Program-made: the position numbers and the translations under genes
Notes under the pieces: generated by a model
The model's input: the letters and a program-made list of their open reading frames with translations, nothing else
What the model was told of the DNA's origin: nothing
The model's database searches: none
Shown here: piece by piece, positions 5,151 through 34,424 of the stretch
Numbering within the stretch: the stretch's first letter is position 1
Layout: each line of letters starts with the position of its first letter
Assembly (NCBI RefSeq): GCF_005405065.1
Contig: NZ_BJDI01000002.1
Coordinates: forward strand, 1 to 64,000
Origin: Lactiplantibacillus nangangensis
GTDB taxonomy: Bacteria > Bacillota > Bacilli > Lactobacillales > Lactobacillaceae
Length of the DNA: 64,000 bases
Reading direction: 5' to 3'

Positions 5151-5333
5151 GTTCCCGAAAGGATAAGAGCGAGTTCGATCTGAACAATCGAATCGTGCAT
5201 AACAGGGCTGTTGACTGTTGATCGTGCCGGTTAAATTTGAGGCTTAACTCGTCTCGGATTTCGGCGTGATGACTCAGTCAAAGCCCTGTTTGTCACTCTT
5301 AGATGCCTTGTAACCGAAATATCTCAAGGGGGA
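5151..5333 (+). promoter_or_regulatory. SMK-box (SAM-III) translational riboswitch with long insertion
   Basis: The 5' block GTTCCCGAAAGGAT (5151-5164) and the 3' block GATGCCTTGTAACCGAA (5302-5318) plus the ribosome site AAGGGGG (5326-5332) are the hallmark sequences of the SMK box, which binds SAM and sequesters the Shine-Dalgarno of metK in Lactobacillales. Between them lies about 130 nt instead of a short linker. The insertion is itself structured: TAAGAG (5164-5169) pairs with CTCTTA (5296-5301), and ACAGGGCT..TGACTG (5202-5217) pairs with CAGTCA..AGCCCTGT (5275-5289). An extended -10 (TGGTATAGT, 5134-5142) supplies the promoter. Identity is firm from the conserved blocks; the role of the insertion is unknown. 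Confidence 0.9.
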
Positions 5334-5341
5334 ATTTTAAA

Positions 5342-6547
5342 GTGAGTGAAAGACACCTATTTACATCTGAATCTGTTTCTGAGGGCCATCCCGATAAAAT
5401 TGCGGATCAAATCAGTGATGCGATTCTAGATGCTATGTTAGAACAAGACCCGCAAGCCCGGGTTGCCGTTGAAACTTCTGTGACAACGGGGTTAGTGCTC
5501 GTCTTTGGTGAAGTATCGACCAAAGCCTACGTCGATATTCAAAAGGTCGTGCGTGACACGATCAAGTCGATTGGCTATGTTGATGGCCAATACGGCTTCG
5601 ACGGTGACAACTGTGCTGTTTTAGTTTCATTGGATGAACAATCACCTGATATCGCGCAAGGGGTCGATGATTCCCTAGAAACTCGTGAAGGTGACGAGGA
5701 TCCATTAGACAAGATTGGTGCCGGTGATCAAGGGATGATGTTTGGCTATGCCATTAACGAAACCCCAGAATTGATGCCATTACCAATTGCCTTAAGCCAT
5801 CGGTTAATGCGTAAGATTGCTGAGTTACGGAAAAACGGCACCATCAAGTGGTTGCGGCCAGATGCGAAAGCTCAGGTCACGGTCGAATATGATGAAAATA
5901 ATCAACCACAACGTGTGGACACGGTCGTTTTGTCAACGCAACATGATCCTGACGTTGACTTGGACACGATTCGCCAAACGGTGATCGACCAAGTCATCAA
6001 AGCCATCATTCCAGCTAACTTGTTGGATGATCAAACCAAGTATTTGGTGAACCCAACTGGTCGCTTTGTGATCGGTGGTCCTCAAGGGGACGCTGGTTTG
6101 ACTGGTCGGAAAGTCATCGTAGATACTTACGGTGGTTTTGCGCATCATGGTGGCGGGGCCTTCTCAGGGAAGGATGCCACTAAGGTTGACCGTTCTGCAA
6201 GCTATGCGGCGCGTTACATTGCCAAGAACATTGTGGCGGCTAAATTAGCTGACCGGGTCGAAGTCCAATTAGCGTATGCAATTGGGGTCGCTGAACCGGT
6301 ATCAATTTCAGTTGATACAGCTGGAACTGGTAAAGTCAGTGATGAAGCCTTGATTGCGGCAATTCGTAAGCACTTTGACTTACGGCCAGCCGGTATCATC
6401 AAGATGTTAGACTTACAGCGCCCAATTTACCGTCAAACGGCGGCATATGGTCACTTCGGTCGGACTGACATCGATTTACCATGGGAACACACTGATAAAG
6501 TTGAAGCCTTACAAGCTGAATTCAGTGCCACTGAACTTAATAAATAA
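5342..6547 (+). CDS. metK: S-adenosylmethionine synthase
   Basis: Makes SAM from methionine and ATP. The 401-residue protein has all family hallmarks: [11 protein letters not shown] near the N-terminus (ATP site), [12 protein letters not shown] in the middle, and [17 protein letters not shown] toward the C-terminus. I use the GTG at 5342 ([11 protein letters not shown]) because it is 9 nt from the GGGGG ribosome site of the SMK box. The ATG at 5303 lies inside the riboswitch and would add 13 residues that the family lacks. It is monocistronic, followed by its own terminator, and regulated by SAM at translation initiation. Confidence 0.97.
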
Positions 6548-19417: not shown

Positions 19418-19452
19418 GATTCGACTATCATTTTTAACTAAGGGGGATGCTG

Positions 19453-19962
19453 ATGATGACTGGTTATCAAGACGTGCTGGTTGGCGTAGATACGTCACCA
19501 CAATCGCAATTAGCACTAGATAAAGCAATTGCGATTGCGGCACAAATGCAAGCAACATTAGATATTGTGACGATTATTAATACTGAAAAATTTATTGGAA
19601 TCACACAAGGACCAATGGGGTTTGGCGCAGCCACGCCACAAGTTTTGGACGAACTGACAACTAAGCTCAAGGCGAACCTAGTGCGGGCACGCAAGGCTGC
19701 GGTGGCTGCCGGGGTGACGGATGTGCAGGTTCACTTGCATTCTGGTAATTCGAAATCATTACTGGCAACGACCTTACCTACGCGTTATGGGACGGATCTA
19801 ATTGTGTTGGGGGCGACTGGACTCAATGCGGTCTCCCGTTTCCTAATTGGGTCGAACGCCACCTATGTCACTCGTAACGCACCTTGTGATGTCTTAGTTG
19901 TGCGTACGGATCAGCAGCATCAACCGGTTAAAACGAGTACGCGGCTAACCCGCCGACTATAA
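19453..19962 (+). CDS. Universal stress protein (UspA family)
   Basis: Single Usp domain, about 169 residues. DVLVGVDTSPQSQLALDKAI is the N-terminal strand-helix and GATGLNAVSRFLIGSNATYVTRNA fits the ATP-binding pattern G-2X-G-9X-G(S/T). Usp proteins of this type bind ATP and accumulate under stress; no specific reaction is assigned. I start at the ATG at 19453 because AAGGGGG (19440-19446) abuts the earlier ATG at 19447; 19456 is also possible. The GGGGGAT at the ribosome site is one of several in the window that could pair with the C-rich loops of the candidate sRNA at 33704-33837 (inference). Confidence 0.9.
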   Translation: MMTGYQDVLVGVDTSPQSQLALDKAIAIAAQMQATLDIVTIINTEKFIGITQGPMGFGAATPQVLDELTTKLKANLVRARKAAVAAGVTDVQVHLHSGNSKSLLATTLPTRYGTDLIVLGATGLNAVSRFLIGSNATYVTRNAPCDVLVVRTDQQHQPVKTSTRLTRRL

Positions 19963-29736: not shown

Positions 29737-29877
29737 TGCCTGCAACTAACTAAGGCAGGGAAAGATTAAGTAAAGATTATTAAGTTTTATCAGATGAAAT
29801 ATACAAATGGCGGTCATTTCGATACAATAAGACTATTGAACTATCGGTTTTCGGGGGAGGGGCGCACCATCGTTTAT

Positions 29878-31182
29878 GTGTATTGGTATATTGCCGCATT
29901 TGATCACTGGTATTCAGTCATGCTGGTCTTTATGCTACAGATTTTAATTAATCGCGAGTTGCGACAGCGGCGCGTCTATGTGACGGTCGTAATGATGGCG
30001 TTGTTACTAACTGGCCTATATATGTGGTATGACGATTATTCGGATATTGCGACTTTCATTGTAAATTTAGGGTTGTTGTGGTTTGTCCGCAATAAAAAGT
30101 TCTTTATTGTCACCAGTTTGACGGCGACCTTATCGTATATCTTGTTCAGTTATTTCGGTAATTTCGCAACCGAGACGATTTTTCATCTGTTTGGGCTTGG
30201 ACTGGATCAATGGAGTGGCTGGTTATTTGAAATTGTTGGTGAAACGATCGTCACCGCCTGCATGTTGGCCGTGGCCATTAGTTTTCAAATCTTGTATAAA
30301 CGACATGCGCGTCAATTTACGGATGAAGTGTTGTTAAACGTCGTCGTGTGTGCATTAGCCGTCGTGGCAATTGCTTTTTTTGCCATTACAACTGCCGCAG
30401 ATAATTACAATATTGGTTCTGGATTTTTAGGAATCTTAATGATTATTCTGGTTGCTATTTTACTGATTAATGGTGGGACGTTCATCTACCTATTTTATAG
30501 TTATACGATGCGGGTTCAGGCTCATCGCCAGTCGCTAGAACGTAAGCAGTATGATATTTACGTTAATAATTTGGAAAGTAGCTATCAAAATTTAAGAAAA
30601 TTTCGTCACGATTATCAAAATATTTTGCTATCATTGGGCGAATATATTCATGCAACCGATAATTCTGAGCTTAAAACCTATTTTGATGAAGTCGTGCTAC
30701 AGTCACAAAAAAGTTTAACCCGTGACTTTGGCCATTTTGACAACTTGGAACGGATTAAGGATAAATCGTTAAAGGCAATCATTCAAAATAAATTTTCAGT
30801 TGCCCGCCAAGCCGGTATCAAGGTCCGACTTGAAGCGAGTGAGCCGGTGACGCAGTTGGCAATCGATCCGGTGACATTAGCGCGGGTGAGCGGTATCTTA
30901 TTAGACAATGCCATTGAAGCGGTGAAGAGCCAAGCAGATGGTCAAATTGCCGTTGCCGTTGTAAAATACCCTAAAATGGTTGAGTTAGTGTTTGCTAATT
31001 CGATTCAGGCACCAATCGCGCGTTTGGATGAATTAATGACTGCTGGGCATACTTCTAAAGGTGTCGGCCACGGTCAGGGTTTAGCCACGGTGCGTGAGTT
31101 ATTAGATCCGTTAGATAATGTGACCTATGAGTTGGGTGCCCGTGATCAGTTCGAATTCATTATCAGTATTGAAAGTGAGTGA
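29878..31182 (+). CDS. Agr-type sensor histidine kinase (HPK10 family)
   Basis: Membrane sensor kinase of the AgrC/ComD/PlnB group, 434 residues from the GTG at 29878. Six or so N-terminal helices are followed by the H-box in RKFRHDYQNILLSLGEY, the N-box ILLDNAIEAVKSQ and the G-box TSKGVGHGQGLATV of a GHKL ATPase. The frame is open from an ATG at 29794, but a -10-like TACAAT at 29823-29828 would place the transcript start beyond that codon. The GGGGGAGGGG ribosome site (29853-29862) is 7 nt from an in-frame ATC (29869) and 15 nt from the GTG, so the exact start is uncertain. It overlaps the response regulator gene by 4 nt. Kinases of this class usually sense peptides, yet no peptide precursor or processing gene is adjacent. 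Confidence 0.88.
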   Translation: MYWYIAAFDHWYSVMLVFMLQILINRELRQRRVYVTVVMMALLLTGLYMWYDDYSDIATFIVNLGLLWFVRNKKFFIVTSLTATLSYILFSYFGNFATETIFHLFGLGLDQWSGWLFEIVGETIVTACMLAVAISFQILYKRHARQFTDEVLLNVVVCALAVVAIAFFAITTAADNYNIGSGFLGILMIILVAILLINGGTFIYLFYSYTMRVQAHRQSLERKQYDIYVNNLESSYQNLRKFRHDYQNILLSLGEYIHATDNSELKTYFDEVVLQSQKSLTRDFGHFDNLERIKDKSLKAIIQNKFSVARQAGIKVRLEASEPVTQLAIDPVTLARVSGILLDNAIEAVKSQADGQIAVAVVKYPKMVELVFANSIQAPIARLDELMTAGHTSKGVGHGQGLATVRELLDPLDNVTYELGARDQFEFIISIESE

Positions 31183-31955
31183 GTGGTTTGTTAAAGACTT
31201 TTGTCGTTGAAGATGATCCAGAGCAATTAGCAACCTTAAAGCAAATTATCAATAACCATATCATGATTAATGATTTTGATATGTGTTTAACGCTGGCAAC
31301 TGGTGAAGCGCAGGCACTTTTGGATGAAGTTAATGCTCACCCAGACTCTGAAGGACTCTATTTTTTGGATATTGATTATCCTGGACAGGCGCTCAATGGG
31401 TTGGAATTGGCCAGCAAGATTAGAGAACAAGATGTGAATGCCAAAATTGTTTTCGTCTCGACACATGCCGAAATGGCGTTCCTCACGTTTGAACGTCGCA
31501 TTGAACCGTTGGATTTTATTGTGAAGGATTTAGGACAAGCGGCAGTTAAAGAAAAAGTCGAAAAAGATATTCGAATCGCCTATGAACGTTATACGAAGCA
31601 AGGTGTTTCGAGCAAGGCCATGTTTTCTTATTCAAAGGGTGGTCAGCTATTTAATTTGCCGTTATCGCAAGTCTTATTTATTGAAACTGGGATGAGTCGG
31701 AATAAGCTGGTTTTGCACTTAGTGGATCGAATCGTACAGTATAATGGCAAAATCAGTGATGAAACAGTTGCACATCCGGAACTTTTTCGAGTCCATAAGA
31801 GCTTTTTGGTCAATCCAAACATGTTGGTGCGGGTGGACAAGCAAGCACAATTAGGCTACTTTGAAAATGGTGAGACAATTGACATTGCAATCCGTAAAAT
31901 GCATGATCTGTTGGCGTTAATTAAACAGGCGCAATTGCCAGTAAAATTAAATTAA
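31179..31955 (+). CDS. LytTR response regulator (AgrA type)
   Basis: Cognate transcription regulator of the upstream kinase, 258 residues. The receiver domain has the acidic pair in FVVEDDPEQ, the phospho-acceptor Asp in YFLDIDYPG and the switch Thr/Lys region (VFVSTHAEMAF; IVKDLG). The C-terminal LytTR DNA-binding domain includes LFIETGMSRNKLVLHL and FRVHKSFLVNPNMLVRVD, the classical LytTR signature. The GTG start overlaps the kinase stop (GTGA); a TTG 9 nt later is an alternative. LytTR regulators bind paired direct repeats about 21 bp apart; I did not find a convincing pair in the window. Confidence 0.9.
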   Translation: MSGLLKTFVVEDDPEQLATLKQIINNHIMINDFDMCLTLATGEAQALLDEVNAHPDSEGLYFLDIDYPGQALNGLELASKIREQDVNAKIVFVSTHAEMAFLTFERRIEPLDFIVKDLGQAAVKEKVEKDIRIAYERYTKQGVSSKAMFSYSKGGQLFNLPLSQVLFIETGMSRNKLVLHLVDRIVQYNGKISDETVAHPELFRVHKSFLVNPNMLVRVDKQAQLGYFENGETIDIAIRKMHDLLALIKQAQLPVKLN

Positions 31956-32038: not shown

Positions 32039-32119
32039 GTTTACTGAACGGAAGTCTCAATTATGATAAGACTATCGACTTAGTCAGTTGTGGGGACTGG
32101 CTAAAAGGGGGATACATTA

Positions 32120-32461
32120 ATGAAGCAGTTTTGGTCGCTGATATTGATGATTCTCGCCGGATGCTTATTAATTCTAGGTTCGGAGTATAGTTTGCAGGGC
32201 GATTATCGTCATCATCGACATCAAGTGACGGCCACCATGACTTATGATGCCGCTAAAAAAGCGGCCATCGTGCGTGGTCGGACGAAGCATGGGGTGATTG
32301 TGACTTTTCGCGCGGGTAAGTTGACGCGACAAGTCATCTCGAACAAACAAGATGGTCGCTTCTACGTCAAACTAGTGATGAAAAATCAATCCAGCGTGGC
32401 TGTACAAGTTGCTGGATTGAAAACAAAAACATTGAAAGTACCAGTAGCGTCAAAGCGTTAG
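32120..32461 (+). CDS. Small exported or lipid-anchored protein, function unknown
   Basis: A 113-residue protein with a short hydrophobic N-terminus (KQFWSLILMILAGCLLILG) and a polar, basic remainder that looks like a single beta-sandwich (VTATMTYDAAKKAAIVRG through VAVQVAGLKTKTLKV). LAGC at positions 12-15 fits a lipobox, though hydrophobic residues continue after the Cys, so a plain membrane anchor is possible. A hairpin (TTAGTCAGT with ACTGGCTAA) lies just before the AAAAGGGGGATA ribosome site and could modulate translation. It follows the two-component operon after a terminator. Confidence 0.65.
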   Translation: MKQFWSLILMILAGCLLILGSEYSLQGDYRHHRHQVTATMTYDAAKKAAIVRGRTKHGVIVTFRAGKLTRQVISNKQDGRFYVKLVMKNQSSVAVQVAGLKTKTLKVPVASKR

Positions 32462-32592: not shown

Positions 32593-32973
32593 GTGAAAAA
32601 AACCATGCTAGTCGTTTGTTTGATATTGGCTGTTGGCTTGATTGGTACCGGAGTTTTACGTTTTCGTTACCATTATCGGTTGTCGATGGGGACGATTACC
32701 GAGACCGCTTTTGCTTGTTCGTTATTAAATATTGGGGTGTTTCTTTTTTTTGTGTTACTGGGGCAGCTTTCAGGACCAATTGTCACGGGGCGTTTTTATT
32801 TGCCATTTTATCGACTTTTACAAGGTGGCTTGATTCCCTTAATCGGCATATTGTTATCGATTTATGGCATGTGGCGGGAAAAGGGCCTGATGAATTGGTG
32901 GCTATTGCAATTTAACTTGTTATTTTTGATTTTTGATATTTTATTAGTTTGGTTTGGCGGGGTTGCAAGTTAA
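32593..32973 (+). CDS. Four-helix membrane protein, function unknown
   Basis: A 126-residue protein with four predicted membrane segments: LVVCLILAVGLIGTGVL, FACSLLNIGVFLFFVLLGQL, LQGGLIPLIGILLSIYGMW and WWLLQFNLLFLIFDILLVWF. I do not recognise a family. The start is GTG at 32593, very close to AAAGGAG (2 nt); the ATG at 32605 is 14 nt away, so neither spacing is ideal. It ends 4 nt inside the convergent neighbour gene, with no terminator between them. Confidence 0.6.
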   Translation: MKKTMLVVCLILAVGLIGTGVLRFRYHYRLSMGTITETAFACSLLNIGVFLFFVLLGQLSGPIVTGRFYLPFYRLLQGGLIPLIGILLSIYGMWREKGLMNWWLLQFNLLFLIFDILLVWFGGVAS

Positions 32974-33521
32974 GCTTTTTTGAGGGCTTGCTTGATCACA
33001 TTATAAAATTCACGTCCATTGGCGACGGCAGTTTGATTGACTTTCACTGTCGTCGCTTTTTCGCGCTCAAAAAGGGTGGTCGTTTTGAGATCCGGATTGG
33101 TGAGTTTAACTGTGATGTCATGAGTGCCCCGATTGGCCAGTTGGATAGTTAGACGGATCTCATTACCAGTAATGGGTAGAGCGCTAACTGAGGTGCCCAA
33201 AATGAGGCTGAGGGCAGTTTCTAAATCGGCTGCGTCACCCGCCGTAAATTGGCTTTTATGTCCATTCCGGACGTCCGTAATCAAATAATTGATCGTATTA
33301 ACAGCGTTGACATAGGCTTCACCGTTCTGATGTTGTCGCTCGTTACCACTGTCAATTTGTGAAAGTGGGCGCCGGTGAATGATGACCAATCGGATGAAAT
33401 AGAACATGACAATAACAACCAGGATACTCGCAAAACCCCTAAAAAATAACATATGACTGAAAGACACTCCTTTAAAATGTAAACTGACGAGAACAGTTAG
33501 CCGTTTAATCAAACCGTTCAT
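32970..33521 (-). CDS. Membrane-anchored protein, function unknown
   Basis: Up to 183 residues: one membrane helix (FRGFASILVVIVMFYFIRLVI, about residues 28-48) followed by a polar external domain. That domain has a helical part (NAVNTINYLITDVRNG) and a beta-rich part (IRLTIQLANRGTHDITVKL). I do not recognise it. Two starts are possible: ATG at 33521, or ATG at 33452 (LFFRGF) with AAAGGAG 14 nt upstream. The external domain resembles a small adhesion- or inhibitor-like fold only in general hydrophobic pattern. It ends in overlap with the convergent four-helix protein gene. Confidence 0.55.
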   Translation of the reverse strand: MNGLIKRLTVLVSLHFKGVSFSHMLFFRGFASILVVIVMFYFIRLVIIHRRPLSQIDSGNERQHQNGEAYVNAVNTINYLITDVRNGHKSQFTAGDAADLETALSLILGTSVSALPITGNEIRLTIQLANRGTHDITVKLTNPDLKTTTLFEREKATTVKVNQTAVANGREFYNVIKQALKKA

Positions 33522-33670
33522 TTGCTTTAACGGTTCCTATCCTAACATGATTTAACCCAAAAAGGTGAAAATTTTTTAACTAATTTTAGAGGCTTACATA
33601 ACTATTTAAATATCATGTAATTTTATATTTTGAAAAATATATTTCTATTTTTCGTGTTTTAAGCATAATC

Positions 33671-33697
33671 TTCACACTTTCTTCACAATTATATAAT
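33671..33697 (+). promoter_or_regulatory. Promoter with direct repeat TTCACA-N5-TTCACA
   Basis: A perfect TATAAT (-10) at 33692-33697 is preceded by TTCACA at 33671-33676 and 33682-33687, two direct copies 11 bp apart (one helical turn). This spacing is typical of OmpR-type response regulator sites such as PhoP or CiaR boxes. The first copy overlaps the -35 position. Transcription would start near 33704. Confidence 0.5.
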
Positions 33698-33703
33698 AGT
33701 ATA

Positions 33704-33837
33704 TACATGTACCTAATAATTATACACTTGTTCATTTTACTCCCCCAAAGTGGATGGACAAGTAAGTACAATCCCCCATATTGTACTTAAACCTAACTCT
33801 TTGGCCCTACTGCTTTATGCGGTAGAGTCATTTTTTT
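33704..33837 (+). ncRNA. Candidate small regulatory RNA with two C-rich hairpin loops
   Basis: Between a consensus -10 (33692-33697) and a terminator lie about 134 nt with no credible gene. Hairpin 1 pairs ACTTGTTCAT (33726-33735) with ATGGACAAGT (33754-33763), with an inner ACT/AGT stem and apical loop CCCCCAA. Hairpin 2 pairs AAGTACAA (33764-33771) with TTGTACTT (33781-33788), closed by T-A, with loop CCCCCAT. Hairpin 3 (33803-33813 with 33819-33829) plus seven Ts is an intrinsic terminator. Both loops expose five Cs able to pair with GGGGG-type ribosome sites, the design of RsaE, LhrC and csRNA regulators in other Firmicutes. Existence as a transcript is inferred; the structure is seen in the sequence. 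Confidence 0.6.
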
Positions 33838-34424
33838 ATCCCCATTTTTGAAAAATGCACCAAAAGTGCACTATCCAAGATTATCGAGTGCAGAGAGTGT
33901 TTTTGAACGTTCGGCTTTTTGCATTTCATCCATAACATGGCTATACACGCTCATTTTATTTTGTATGTTGCGTGGCCTAATCTAATACCAAAGATAGTGA
34001 CTTATTTTTATAATAAATATGATGCGTGAGTATGACGTAATGAGGAAAGTAGAATTCTGAAATGTTAATATCACACTTGGCGAGCACTTTGCAGACTTGC
34101 TTGTTCAGGGTTGCCGTTGAGTTTAGTTCAGGTGAAGCACATCTTTAACTCTGGAGGAGGTGGGAGGTGTTTTTTCATTGAGTAAATGTGATTGACTATA
34201 AAGACTGTTATACGTTAAAATGACGATAAGATAACTTGAGAAGGAATAACACTGGGTCCCAAGATGGGGTAGGTACTTTTGTACTTAGCATTCCCATGTG
34301 CCTGGGGTTATCTTTTTTATTTCTTTGCTTTTAAGTTTTCAACAGATGTTGTGAGAGTCTGTTCGTTAATAAGATGAAGCTTCATCAAAAAGTTGTTTAC
34401 CACAAAATGAAAGGGGTTACAGGC
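33838..34424. other. AT-rich intergenic region with hairpin-terminator at 34245-34318
   Basis: No intact gene is supported. Elements seen are a small hairpin TGCAC/GTGCA (33856-33870), a strong GC-rich structure from 34245 to 34312 (TAGGTAC/GTACTTA around a TTTT loop, flanked by ATGGG/CCCAT and ATAAC/GTTAT) that runs into TTTTTT, and a minus-strand open stretch around 34000-34160 of unknown origin. The 34245 structure reads as a terminator or attenuator in front of the decayed methyltransferase gene. Confidence 0.45.

What the first reader, a model, noticed from the sequence alone, without database searches (positions are those of the whole stretch)
33671..33837. Candidate small RNA presenting two CCCCC loops, with its own promoter and terminator
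Seen directly: a consensus TATAAT, two consecutive stem-loops whose apical loops are CCCCCAA and CCCCCAT, and an intrinsic terminator, all within about 165 nt of otherwise gene-free DNA. Known: Firmicute sRNAs such as RsaE/RoxS, LhrC and the streptococcal csRNAs use unpaired C-rich motifs to block GGGGG/GGAGG ribosome sites. Inferred: this RNA does the same. In this window GGGGGAT or GGGGGA ribosome sites occur before usp (19441), the 113-residue exported protein (32106) and metK (5328).
Basis: partly seen in the sequence, partly recalled or inferred. Interest (0 to 1): 0.78.

Follow-up and report, generated by a model that had tools for sequence, protein, structure and literature searches.

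The report
Multicopy ribosome-site-blocking small RNA family
This stretch encodes one copy of a so far unnamed, multicopy family of small RNAs in lactic acid bacteria that hold out C-rich loops able to cover ribosome-binding sites, most of whose promoters share a conserved site of the kind bound by two-component regulators, so it looks like a widespread stress-response RNA that had been overlooked.

Summary
In detail: 33709-33837 folds into two hairpins with CCCCCAA and CCCCCAT loops plus an intrinsic terminator (z -4.45), conserved in 20 of 20 same-genus (Lactiplantibacillus) genomes. It is not alone. A core-motif scan and a covariance model find the family in nine named Lactobacillaceae genera and in other families of the order; relatives occur in Enterococcus and Vagococcus records. 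The window's genome has six copies, five within 5 kb (one scores weakly). Stems differ between genera while loops stay C-rich. No Rfam family matches.

A similar motif precedes 9 of 30 PieR-like regulator genes against 0 of 30 PhoP-like ones. Hairpin 1 is antisense to an ideal gene start (GGRGG-6-ATG). Genes with TTGGGGGA ribosome sites are mostly envelope or transport genes, including dltA.

It works like LhrC and csRNAs but is a separate family. All evidence is computational.

The parts
33671..33687 (+). Direct repeat TTCACA-N5-TTCACA, proposed binding site of an OmpR-type response regulator
   Evidence: sequence; 0-2 mismatches in 52 of 52 non-Levilactobacillus sites; only perfect copy in the own genome
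33697..33702 (+). -10 element TAGTAT (proposed), nine bases after the repeat
   Evidence: Spacing conserved in 47 of 48 distinct promoters
33709..33837 (+). Small RNA, about 130 nt (start inferred, end at the terminator T-run)
   Evidence: 20 of 20 same-genus genomes; model R1 84.2 bits at 33721-33837 (R1 was built with this sequence among its 36)
33726..33763 (+). Hairpin 1, loop CCCCCAA at 33742-33748; its 5' arm and loop are antisense to a GGGGG-AGTAAA-ATG gene start
33764..33788 (+). Hairpin 2, loop CCCCCAT at 33773-33779
   Evidence: its 9 pairs never vary within the genus
33789..33801 (+). Single-stranded linker with CCTAACTC, a third possible pairing element
   Evidence: Unpaired probability 0.967 for CTAACTC; a linker of this type found in 79 of 81 members
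33802..33837 (+). Intrinsic terminator
5328..5344 (+). GGGGGA ribosome site of metK, possible weak target
19442..19458 (+). GGGGGA ribosome site of the usp gene, possible weak target
32107..32122 (+). GGGGGA ribosome site of the 113-residue protein, possible weak target

Best explanation
33709-33837 is one of six related trans-acting small RNAs in this genome. Shown by computation: the fold, the family, the copies, the conserved unpaired C-rich loops and the promoter repeat. Inferred: an OmpR-type response regulator, most likely the PieR-like one (G000:C3:159870), binds the TTCACA-N5-TTCACA repeat over the -35 region and switches on the box-bearing copies together. Each RNA then offers two or more C-rich elements (loop 1, loop 2, the linker, in some copies the terminator loop), which pair with G-rich ribosome-binding sites and block translation; hairpin 1 can in addition reach the start codon, being antisense to GGRGG-AGTAAA-ATG-A. 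The preferred targets have GGGGGA-type sites and are rich in envelope and transport genes such as dltA, a CPBP-type membrane protease, transporters and a WxL-interacting surface protein.
For: Fold and loops. Conservation of box plus RNA; unrelated flanks seen in the 12 of 21 rows that were in the right orientation (9 were reversed by mistake). Family: 101 stretches in named genomes, 80 loci returned, 77 kept. Hairpin 2 mean z -4.7 and terminator mean z -4.4 in 79 of 81 members. In 13 of 15 representatives a hairpin-2 stem as long arises in at most 2 of 500 shuffles (exceptions Lcb. zhaodongensis 145 and Loi. iwatensis 22 of 500), while arms crossed between species pair at 722 of 1702 positions (0.42): compensatory change. 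Multicopy. Box as the family's promoter; a matrix made only from the loci finds boxes at 13.1, 20.7 and 16.2 bits 76-79 bases before three of the five other own copies, and at 18-30 bits before 12 of 14 members outside the family, against a maximum of 12.5 in 2711 background windows. Regulator: PieR-like gene 9 of 30 upstream regions above 5.5 bits (five genera), PhoP-like 0 of 30, random 0.8% of 1344. Targets: TTGGGGGA-start genes 9 of 11 with a predicted membrane or signal segment against 5 of 23 TTAAGGAG-start genes, p 0.002, or 8 of 11 and p 0.008 if dltA is not counted. Antisense gene start: codon 2 reads AAA in 69 of 81 members.
Against: No expression data. Within the genus no base pair changes on both sides (0 of 35; 28 never vary), and 9 of 20 distinct rows break the outermost pair of hairpin 1. 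RNAalifold on the cross-genus alignment does not recover hairpin 2. 7 of 79 members lack a C-rich hairpin-2 loop, and the window copy's terminator loop is not C-rich. All 28 Levilactobacillus-type sites lack the box but keep the RNA, and Levilactobacillus keeps the PieR-like gene. Two of the five other own copies have no recognised box, and a 16.0-bit box hit on the same stretch lies inside a gene without any sRNA. One-mismatch repeats in the own genome are hardly commoner than the control pattern (13 sites including the perfect one, control 9), and one of 14.2 bits precedes recU, not an sRNA. Two of 14 members outside the family (10.2 and -5.3 bits) and 5 of 14 further members inside it score below 12.5; the Vagococcus plasmid copy scores 0.3. 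21 of 30 PieR-like orthologs show no forward box. 46 of 81 family genomes have no match to the model. One own copy scores weakly (19.7 bits, E 0.16). The CAT of the antisense start was required by the search pattern. The envelope bias of GGGGGA genes could exist without the RNA, and is weaker in the two other species (10 of 17).
Confidence: 0.8

Rival explanations
1. A C-loop sRNA that mainly acts as a sponge or protein-binding RNA, for example titrating another RNA or an RNA-binding protein, rather than blocking ribosome sites.
For: The loops are redundant and strongly conserved, as in protein-titrating RNAs (general knowledge); up to 12 matches per genome.
Against: Loop 1 with its 5' arm is antisense to a ribosome site plus start codon, and genes with the complementary site form a biased set. 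I did not search for a partner RNA or protein.
Confidence: 0.1
2. Same sRNA mechanism, but the controlling regulator is not the PieR-like one (e.g. WalR/YycF, ArlR/LisR-type or VanR-like regulator).
For: Levilactobacillus keeps a PieR-like gene but lacks the box. The regulators L171 (YycF) and L181 (ArlR/LisR-like) have reciprocal best matches in all seven genomes compared. In Listeria the analogous LhrC needs LisR (passages).
Against: Box-like sites precede 9 of 30 PieR-like genes and 0 of 30 PhoP-like genes; in the other groups of the 8-genome set only one forward hit passes 5.5 bits (Agr L171, 9.9) and two reverse ones (LoiZha L197 10.9, SecFol L185 5.9).
Confidence: 0.4
3. A mobile-element remnant RNA without regulatory role: the locus abuts an integrase remnant.
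For: Integrase C-terminal remnant at 33839-34020 on the minus strand; in G006 a partial copy lies beside an integrase-like gene (both named by my reading).
Against: Presence in 20 of 20 same-genus genomes, other genera and other families. The partial copy holds only the 3' half, as expected of an attachment site.
Confidence: 0.03
4. The conserved core is the start of a small protein gene on the minus strand (or the plus strand codes), not an RNA gene.
For: The reverse complement of the core is a perfect ribosome site plus ATG; the three unrelated matches do start frames of at least 81 codons there.
Against: In the 81 members that minus-strand frame is not kept: 56 of 81 have 9 codons or fewer, the longest 68. 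Hairpin 2 varies from 27 to 60 nt and its stem changes by compensation. On the plus strand I see only tiny ATG frames (by eye).
Confidence: 0.01

Closest known systems
LhrC1-5 of Listeria monocytogenes (Rfam RF00616)
   Same: Several copies; [quoted passage not shown] switched on by a two-component system under cell-envelope stress (PMC4132741, passages only).
   Different: No covariance match: RF00616 matches 33 of 246 order genomes, all in one family and none in Lactobacillaceae, and nothing in the window. The TTCACA repeat comes within one mismatch in 1 of 13 LhrC promoters read, of 20 loci fetched.
csRNAs / Ccn sRNAs of Streptococcus (CiaRH-controlled)
   Same: Several homologous copies under one response regulator (title and abstract start of PMC11478796); unpaired C-rich motifs (recalled).
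   Different: The CiaR repeat TTTAAG-N5-TTTAAG (recalled) is absent upstream of the window RNA, which has TTCACA-N5-TTCACA. I had no csRNA model to test homology.
RoxS/RsaE
   Same: C-rich single-stranded motif aimed at G-rich ribosome sites (recalled).
   Different: No Rfam match in the window; promoter and copy number differ (recalled for RoxS/RsaE).

Membership tests
LhrC (RF00616) | Match to the family covariance model | tested here: not met
   No hit in the window at gathering or at E up to 10 over 33600-33900; own genome 0 matches (stricter filters)
LhrC (RF00616) | Redundant CU-rich motifs in hairpin loop, single strand and terminator loop | tested here: inconclusive
   Loops 1 and 2 and linker in the window copy, but its terminator loop is not C-rich; it is in own copy C7:167808 and in several genera
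LhrC (RF00616) | Several copies per genome | tested here: met
   Six copies in the own genome, one of them weak
LhrC (RF00616) | Transcription depends on LisR | not testable with these tools
   An ArlR/LisR-type regulator (L181) exists (the LisR likeness is recalled); LhrC promoters do not generally carry this repeat
csRNA / Ccn | CiaR direct repeat in the promoter | tested here: not met
   Sequence 33600-33710 read: TTCACA repeat, a single TTTAAG but no TTTAAG-N5-TTTAAG (CiaR motif recalled)
csRNA / Ccn | Multiple homologous copies under one response regulator | tested here: inconclusive
   Copies shown; box before the window copy and 3 of the 5 others; regulator not shown
RoxS/RsaE | Match to a described family model | tested here: not met
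   No Rfam hit in the window
Anti-Shine-Dalgarno trans-acting sRNA (functional class) | Represses targets by pairing at the ribosome site | not testable with these tools
   Only complementarity and a biased gene set were shown

The most novel reading that the evidence does not exclude
This is an ancient regulatory module spanning several families of the order Lactobacillales: one OmpR-type (PieR-like) response regulator, bound at a TTCACA-N5-TTCACA site nine bases before the -10, drives an expandable set of up to a dozen C-loop RNAs. Their first hairpin is a molecular mirror image of a gene start (ribosome site, spacer, ATG, and often AAA codons as in exported proteins), so that they reset envelope protein synthesis. 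It would be the counterpart of LhrC in Listeria and csRNAs in Streptococcus, or even share a common ancestor with them. The set expands by tandem duplication, occurs on plasmids, and in one lineage its 3' half serves as a prophage attachment site.
Probability: 0.35. Interest if true: 0.78.

Novelty: new member of a known kind. Interest (0 to 1): 0.63.

Why it matters
Post-transcriptional control in Lactobacillaceae is little charted (general knowledge). A multicopy sRNA family with a shared regulator-type site, present in Lactiplantibacillus and related genera and with relatives in Enterococcus and Vagococcus records, would give these food and gut bacteria an sRNA circuit comparable to LhrC or the CiaR-csRNA system, probably for envelope stress. 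It links a candidate two-component system to candidate targets such as dltA, and can be tested at once with deletions in laboratory strains and with existing RNA-seq data.

Tried and rejected
The Rfam route gave nothing for the sRNA. In one search one match, rli28 in L397, is a separate feature downstream of the sRNA; it seems to hold a small toxin-type ORF (my reading), and I left it there. Covariation inside the genus is uninformative, and RNAalifold across genera misses hairpin 2; I used shuffles and crossed arms instead. I first took the repeat for a PhoP box (recalled resemblance); 30 PhoP-like genes show no forward site. I then thought of LisR, because LhrC needs it; 1 of 13 LhrC promoters comes within one mismatch, so this is unproven. 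Loss of a regulator together with the box in Levilactobacillus was tested and not seen: in the 8-genome comparison each own OmpR-type regulator but L207 has a reciprocal match there. Three ORFs in that set were picked wrongly by my script (LcbSha L160 and L175, Agr L199) and one of the 30 PieR-like windows starts at the wrong place (L253). A blastn search of the phage collection with the sRNA found nothing, nor did one of the plasmid collection with L399. Literature: a description of this family was not found in ten searches, which cover only an open-licence library. Seen as passages only: PMC4132741, PMC5880928, PMC13109727, PMC3040137, PMC8249650. PMC11478796: listing with abstract start and one passage. 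Other papers: search listings only.

Full report
What is there. The window lies in a 2.9 Mb genome (G000, contig C2 1-64000) of a genus that matches Lactiplantibacillus: the same-genus genome G006 has a contig of 131588 bases, like the L. daowaiensis record of the same length. Between a divergent 183-residue ORF (32970-33521, minus) and an integrase remnant lies a sequence that folds into two C-loop hairpins and an intrinsic terminator, with energy z -4.45 and 0 of 200 shuffles as stable. Both CCCCC runs are unpaired (probability at least 0.997), and so is the linker CTAACTC (0.967).

Conservation. All 20 same-genus genomes among the 60 relatives searched carry it at E 3.7e-54 or better; the other 40 gave weak or no matches, of which G035, G032 and G030 proved on reading to be members. 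In the 21-sequence alignment the RNA is nearly invariant and the terminator loop is free to vary. Flanks beyond the repeat and the T-run do not align, judged and from the 12 rows in the right orientation (9 rows had been reversed by mistake). Within the genus no pair changes on both sides, so covariation cannot be tested there.

The family. The exact core CATTTTACTCCYCCAAAGT occurs in 101 stretches of named bacterial genomes; 80 loci were returned. Three (two Ruminococcaceae, one Paracoccus) were dropped: read on the other strand they are ordinary gene starts. That leaves 80 sites in 77 loci from Lactiplanti-, Levi-, Secundi-, Loigo-, Lacticasei-, Agri-, Lapidi- and Latilactobacillus, Candidatus Paralactobacillus and L. 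selangorensis; genus labels for a few unnamed isolates are mine. With the window that makes 81 members. In 79 of 81 (L080 is cut by the contig end, L089 differs) a hairpin 2, a linker such as CCTTACTC and a terminator follow; mean z is -4.7 for hairpin 2 (below -1.5 in 71 of 79) and -4.4 for the terminator, and 72 of 79 have CCC or more in a hairpin-2 loop (counted by eye; exceptions L042, L046, L053, L057, L065, L110, L112). The stems differ: crossing the arms of 15 representatives leaves 722 of 1702 positions paired (0.42), whereas a real stem's length is reached in at most 2 of 500 shuffles in 13 of 15. Loops stay, stems change by compensation.

Copies and range. A covariance model built from 36 members matches 35 of 81 Lactobacillaceae genomes and 20 of 40 genera at E up to 0.01, and 65 of 246 genomes of the order at E up to 0.001, 49 of these in other families, with up to 12 matches per genome and tandem runs. 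E-values of this model are rough. The own genome holds the window copy and five more on one strand within 5 kb of contig C7 (at 163370, 166390, 166781, 167808, 168212; 38.4, 19.7, 30.5, 66.0, 53.9 bits), with protein genes between some of them; the 19.7-bit one is weak on its own. A BLAST search with one member from outside the family (L397) gives 12 plasmid records of Enterococcus and Vagococcus; another member (L399) gives none. Of the 12, three were read: the Vagococcus one has the full core but no scored box, the E. faecalis one a shortened core (ACTCCTCAAGT) and a box by eye, the E. faecium one only ACTCCTT with a CCCC terminator loop and a box by eye.

Promoter. In all 52 non-Levilactobacillus sites a TTCACA-N5-TTCACA repeat with at most two mismatches lies upstream; in all 28 Levilactobacillus-type sites the best match has 3-5 mismatches. 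The single Lapidilactobacillus box lies unusually far away. The own genome has one perfect copy, the window one; with one mismatch allowed there are 13 sites against 9 for the control pattern, so near-matches mean little by themselves. A weight matrix made from the loci alone also marks three of the five other own copies, 12 of 14 members outside the family at 18-30 bits, and 9 of 14 further members inside it above 12.5 bits, some of which were already in the matrix; 2711 background windows reach at most 12.5. On the own C7 stretch one hit of 16.0 bits lies inside a gene with no sRNA, and a 14.2-bit site precedes recU. An 11-base direct repeat overlapping the -35 region is a usual site of an OmpR-type response regulator (general knowledge).

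Which regulator. The genome has seven OmpR-type regulators. NCBIfam names one above its cut-off, YycF/WalR (L171); L162 is nearest to PieR but below the cut-off (297.8 against 450 bits). Among 30 orthologs of L162 (of 55 found in 81 genomes) a forward box-like site above 5.5 bits lies upstream in 9, from five genera, against 0 of 30 for the PhoP-like gene and 0.8% of 1344 random windows. This suggests autoregulation through the same motif and makes the PieR-like regulator my first candidate, at about even odds. Against it, Levilactobacillus keeps the gene without the box.

Mirror of a gene start. Read on the other strand, the 5' arm and loop of hairpin 1 spell ACTTTGGRGGAGTAAAATG: ribosome site, six-base spacer and start codon. 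Codon 2 would be AAA in 69 of 81 members, and codons 2-3 AAA AAA or AAA AAG in 33 of 81, but the frame behind it is not kept (9 codons or fewer in 56 of 81), so it is no gene; the ATG part was imposed by the search pattern. The RNA can thus pair over both ribosome site and start codon. In LhrC part of stem A likewise pairs with -2 to +7 of its target (PMC4132741, passage).

Targets. In the own genome TTGGGGGA-N3-12-ATG occurs 23 times against 5 for the reversed pattern; three of the 23 are the antisense of sRNA copies. Of the other 20, eleven begin ORFs of 80 residues or more. Nine of these have a predicted membrane or signal segment (simple hydropathy scan; dltA doubtful) against 5 of 23 for TTAAGGAG starts (29 of 39 control sites examined), p 0.002, or 0.008 without dltA. 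Two further species gave 10 of 17 (26 of 36 sites examined); pooled 19 of 28, p 0.002. Named by Pfam or NCBIfam: two MFS transporters, a CPBP-type protease, a WxL-interacting protein, a beta-lactamase-fold protein, DltA and a DegV protein, and in G019 UDP-galactopyranose mutase and a glycosyltransferase; L312 and L327 have no Pfam match. The TTGGGGGA site is also seen in dltA of G002 (88% identity) and in CPBP homologs of G002 and G019 (61 and 56%). These are predictions only.

How it works. Most likely, envelope or antimicrobial stress activates the regulator; several near-redundant RNAs are made; each exposes C-rich loops that cover G-rich ribosome sites of envelope-protein mRNAs. Signal and repression are inferred from the likeness to LhrC, for which both were shown (PMC4132741, passages).

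What it is and is not. It works like LhrC and csRNAs. It is not a member of LhrC: RF00616 matches 33 of 246 order genomes, all in one family, none in Lactobacillaceae. It lacks the CiaR site that marks csRNAs (motif recalled). I therefore call it a new family of a known kind, without a match in Rfam 15 and not found in my literature searches.

Side finding. In G006 the 3' half of the sRNA gene (query 76-138, 95% identity) is repeated about 40 kb away beside an ORF that reads as a tyrosine-type integrase (named by my reading), and in the window an integrase C-terminal remnant abuts the terminator. The gene's 3' half thus probably serves as an attachment site, as tRNA genes often do.

Searches were added on rereading; they supplied the mirror-image reading, the minus-strand-gene test and the names of usp, recU and DegV.

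Noticed in passing
window 33839-34020 (minus): Remnant of an integrase C-terminus by my reading (NIQNKMSVYSHVMDEMQKAERSKTLSALDNLG, then stop) directly after the sRNA terminator.
   Followed up: partly
L036 (G006:C6:58393-58456) and L014: Partial copy of the sRNA 3' half next to an integrase-like ORF, intact copy about 40 kb away: the sRNA gene looks like a prophage attachment site.
   Followed up: partly
L299 2050-2366, 5062-5126, 6495-6559; window 6738 and 6829: A repeated element follows sRNA copies on contig C7 (five 65-nt copies, 69-100% alike, part of longer repeats of about 126-133 nt); its end motif also occurs twice near 6.7-6.8 kb in the window with 1-2 mismatches, though the number of matches in the window is no more than chance.
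   Followed up: partly
L040-L119, Levilactobacillus loci: Levilactobacillus keeps the RNA but lacks the regulator box and seems to use another promoter, with a shared GTTGCGG and a TCTGTCCTCATTCAACAGAC leader.
   Followed up: no
L145 around 1501-1517 (G000:C2:244531-244547, minus): A 14.2-bit copy of the regulator box lies about 50 bases upstream of a recU gene (Pfam PF03838), near a DivIVA-domain gene on the other strand; recU is usually followed by a penicillin-binding protein gene (recalled), so the box may also serve an envelope operon.
   Followed up: partly
L434 (Vagococcus fluvialis plasmid NZ_CP122525.1): A C-loop sRNA of this family on a 10-kb plasmid, between an amidase-domain gene and a helix-turn-helix gene.
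   Followed up: partly
window 29794-31955: GHKL-type histidine kinase and LytTR response regulator pair (Pfam) about 2 kb upstream of the sRNA.
   Followed up: no
L397 1265-1468 (minus): Rfam rli28 match just downstream of an sRNA of this family in a genome of another family of the order; by my reading it contains a small toxin-type ORF.
   Followed up: partly
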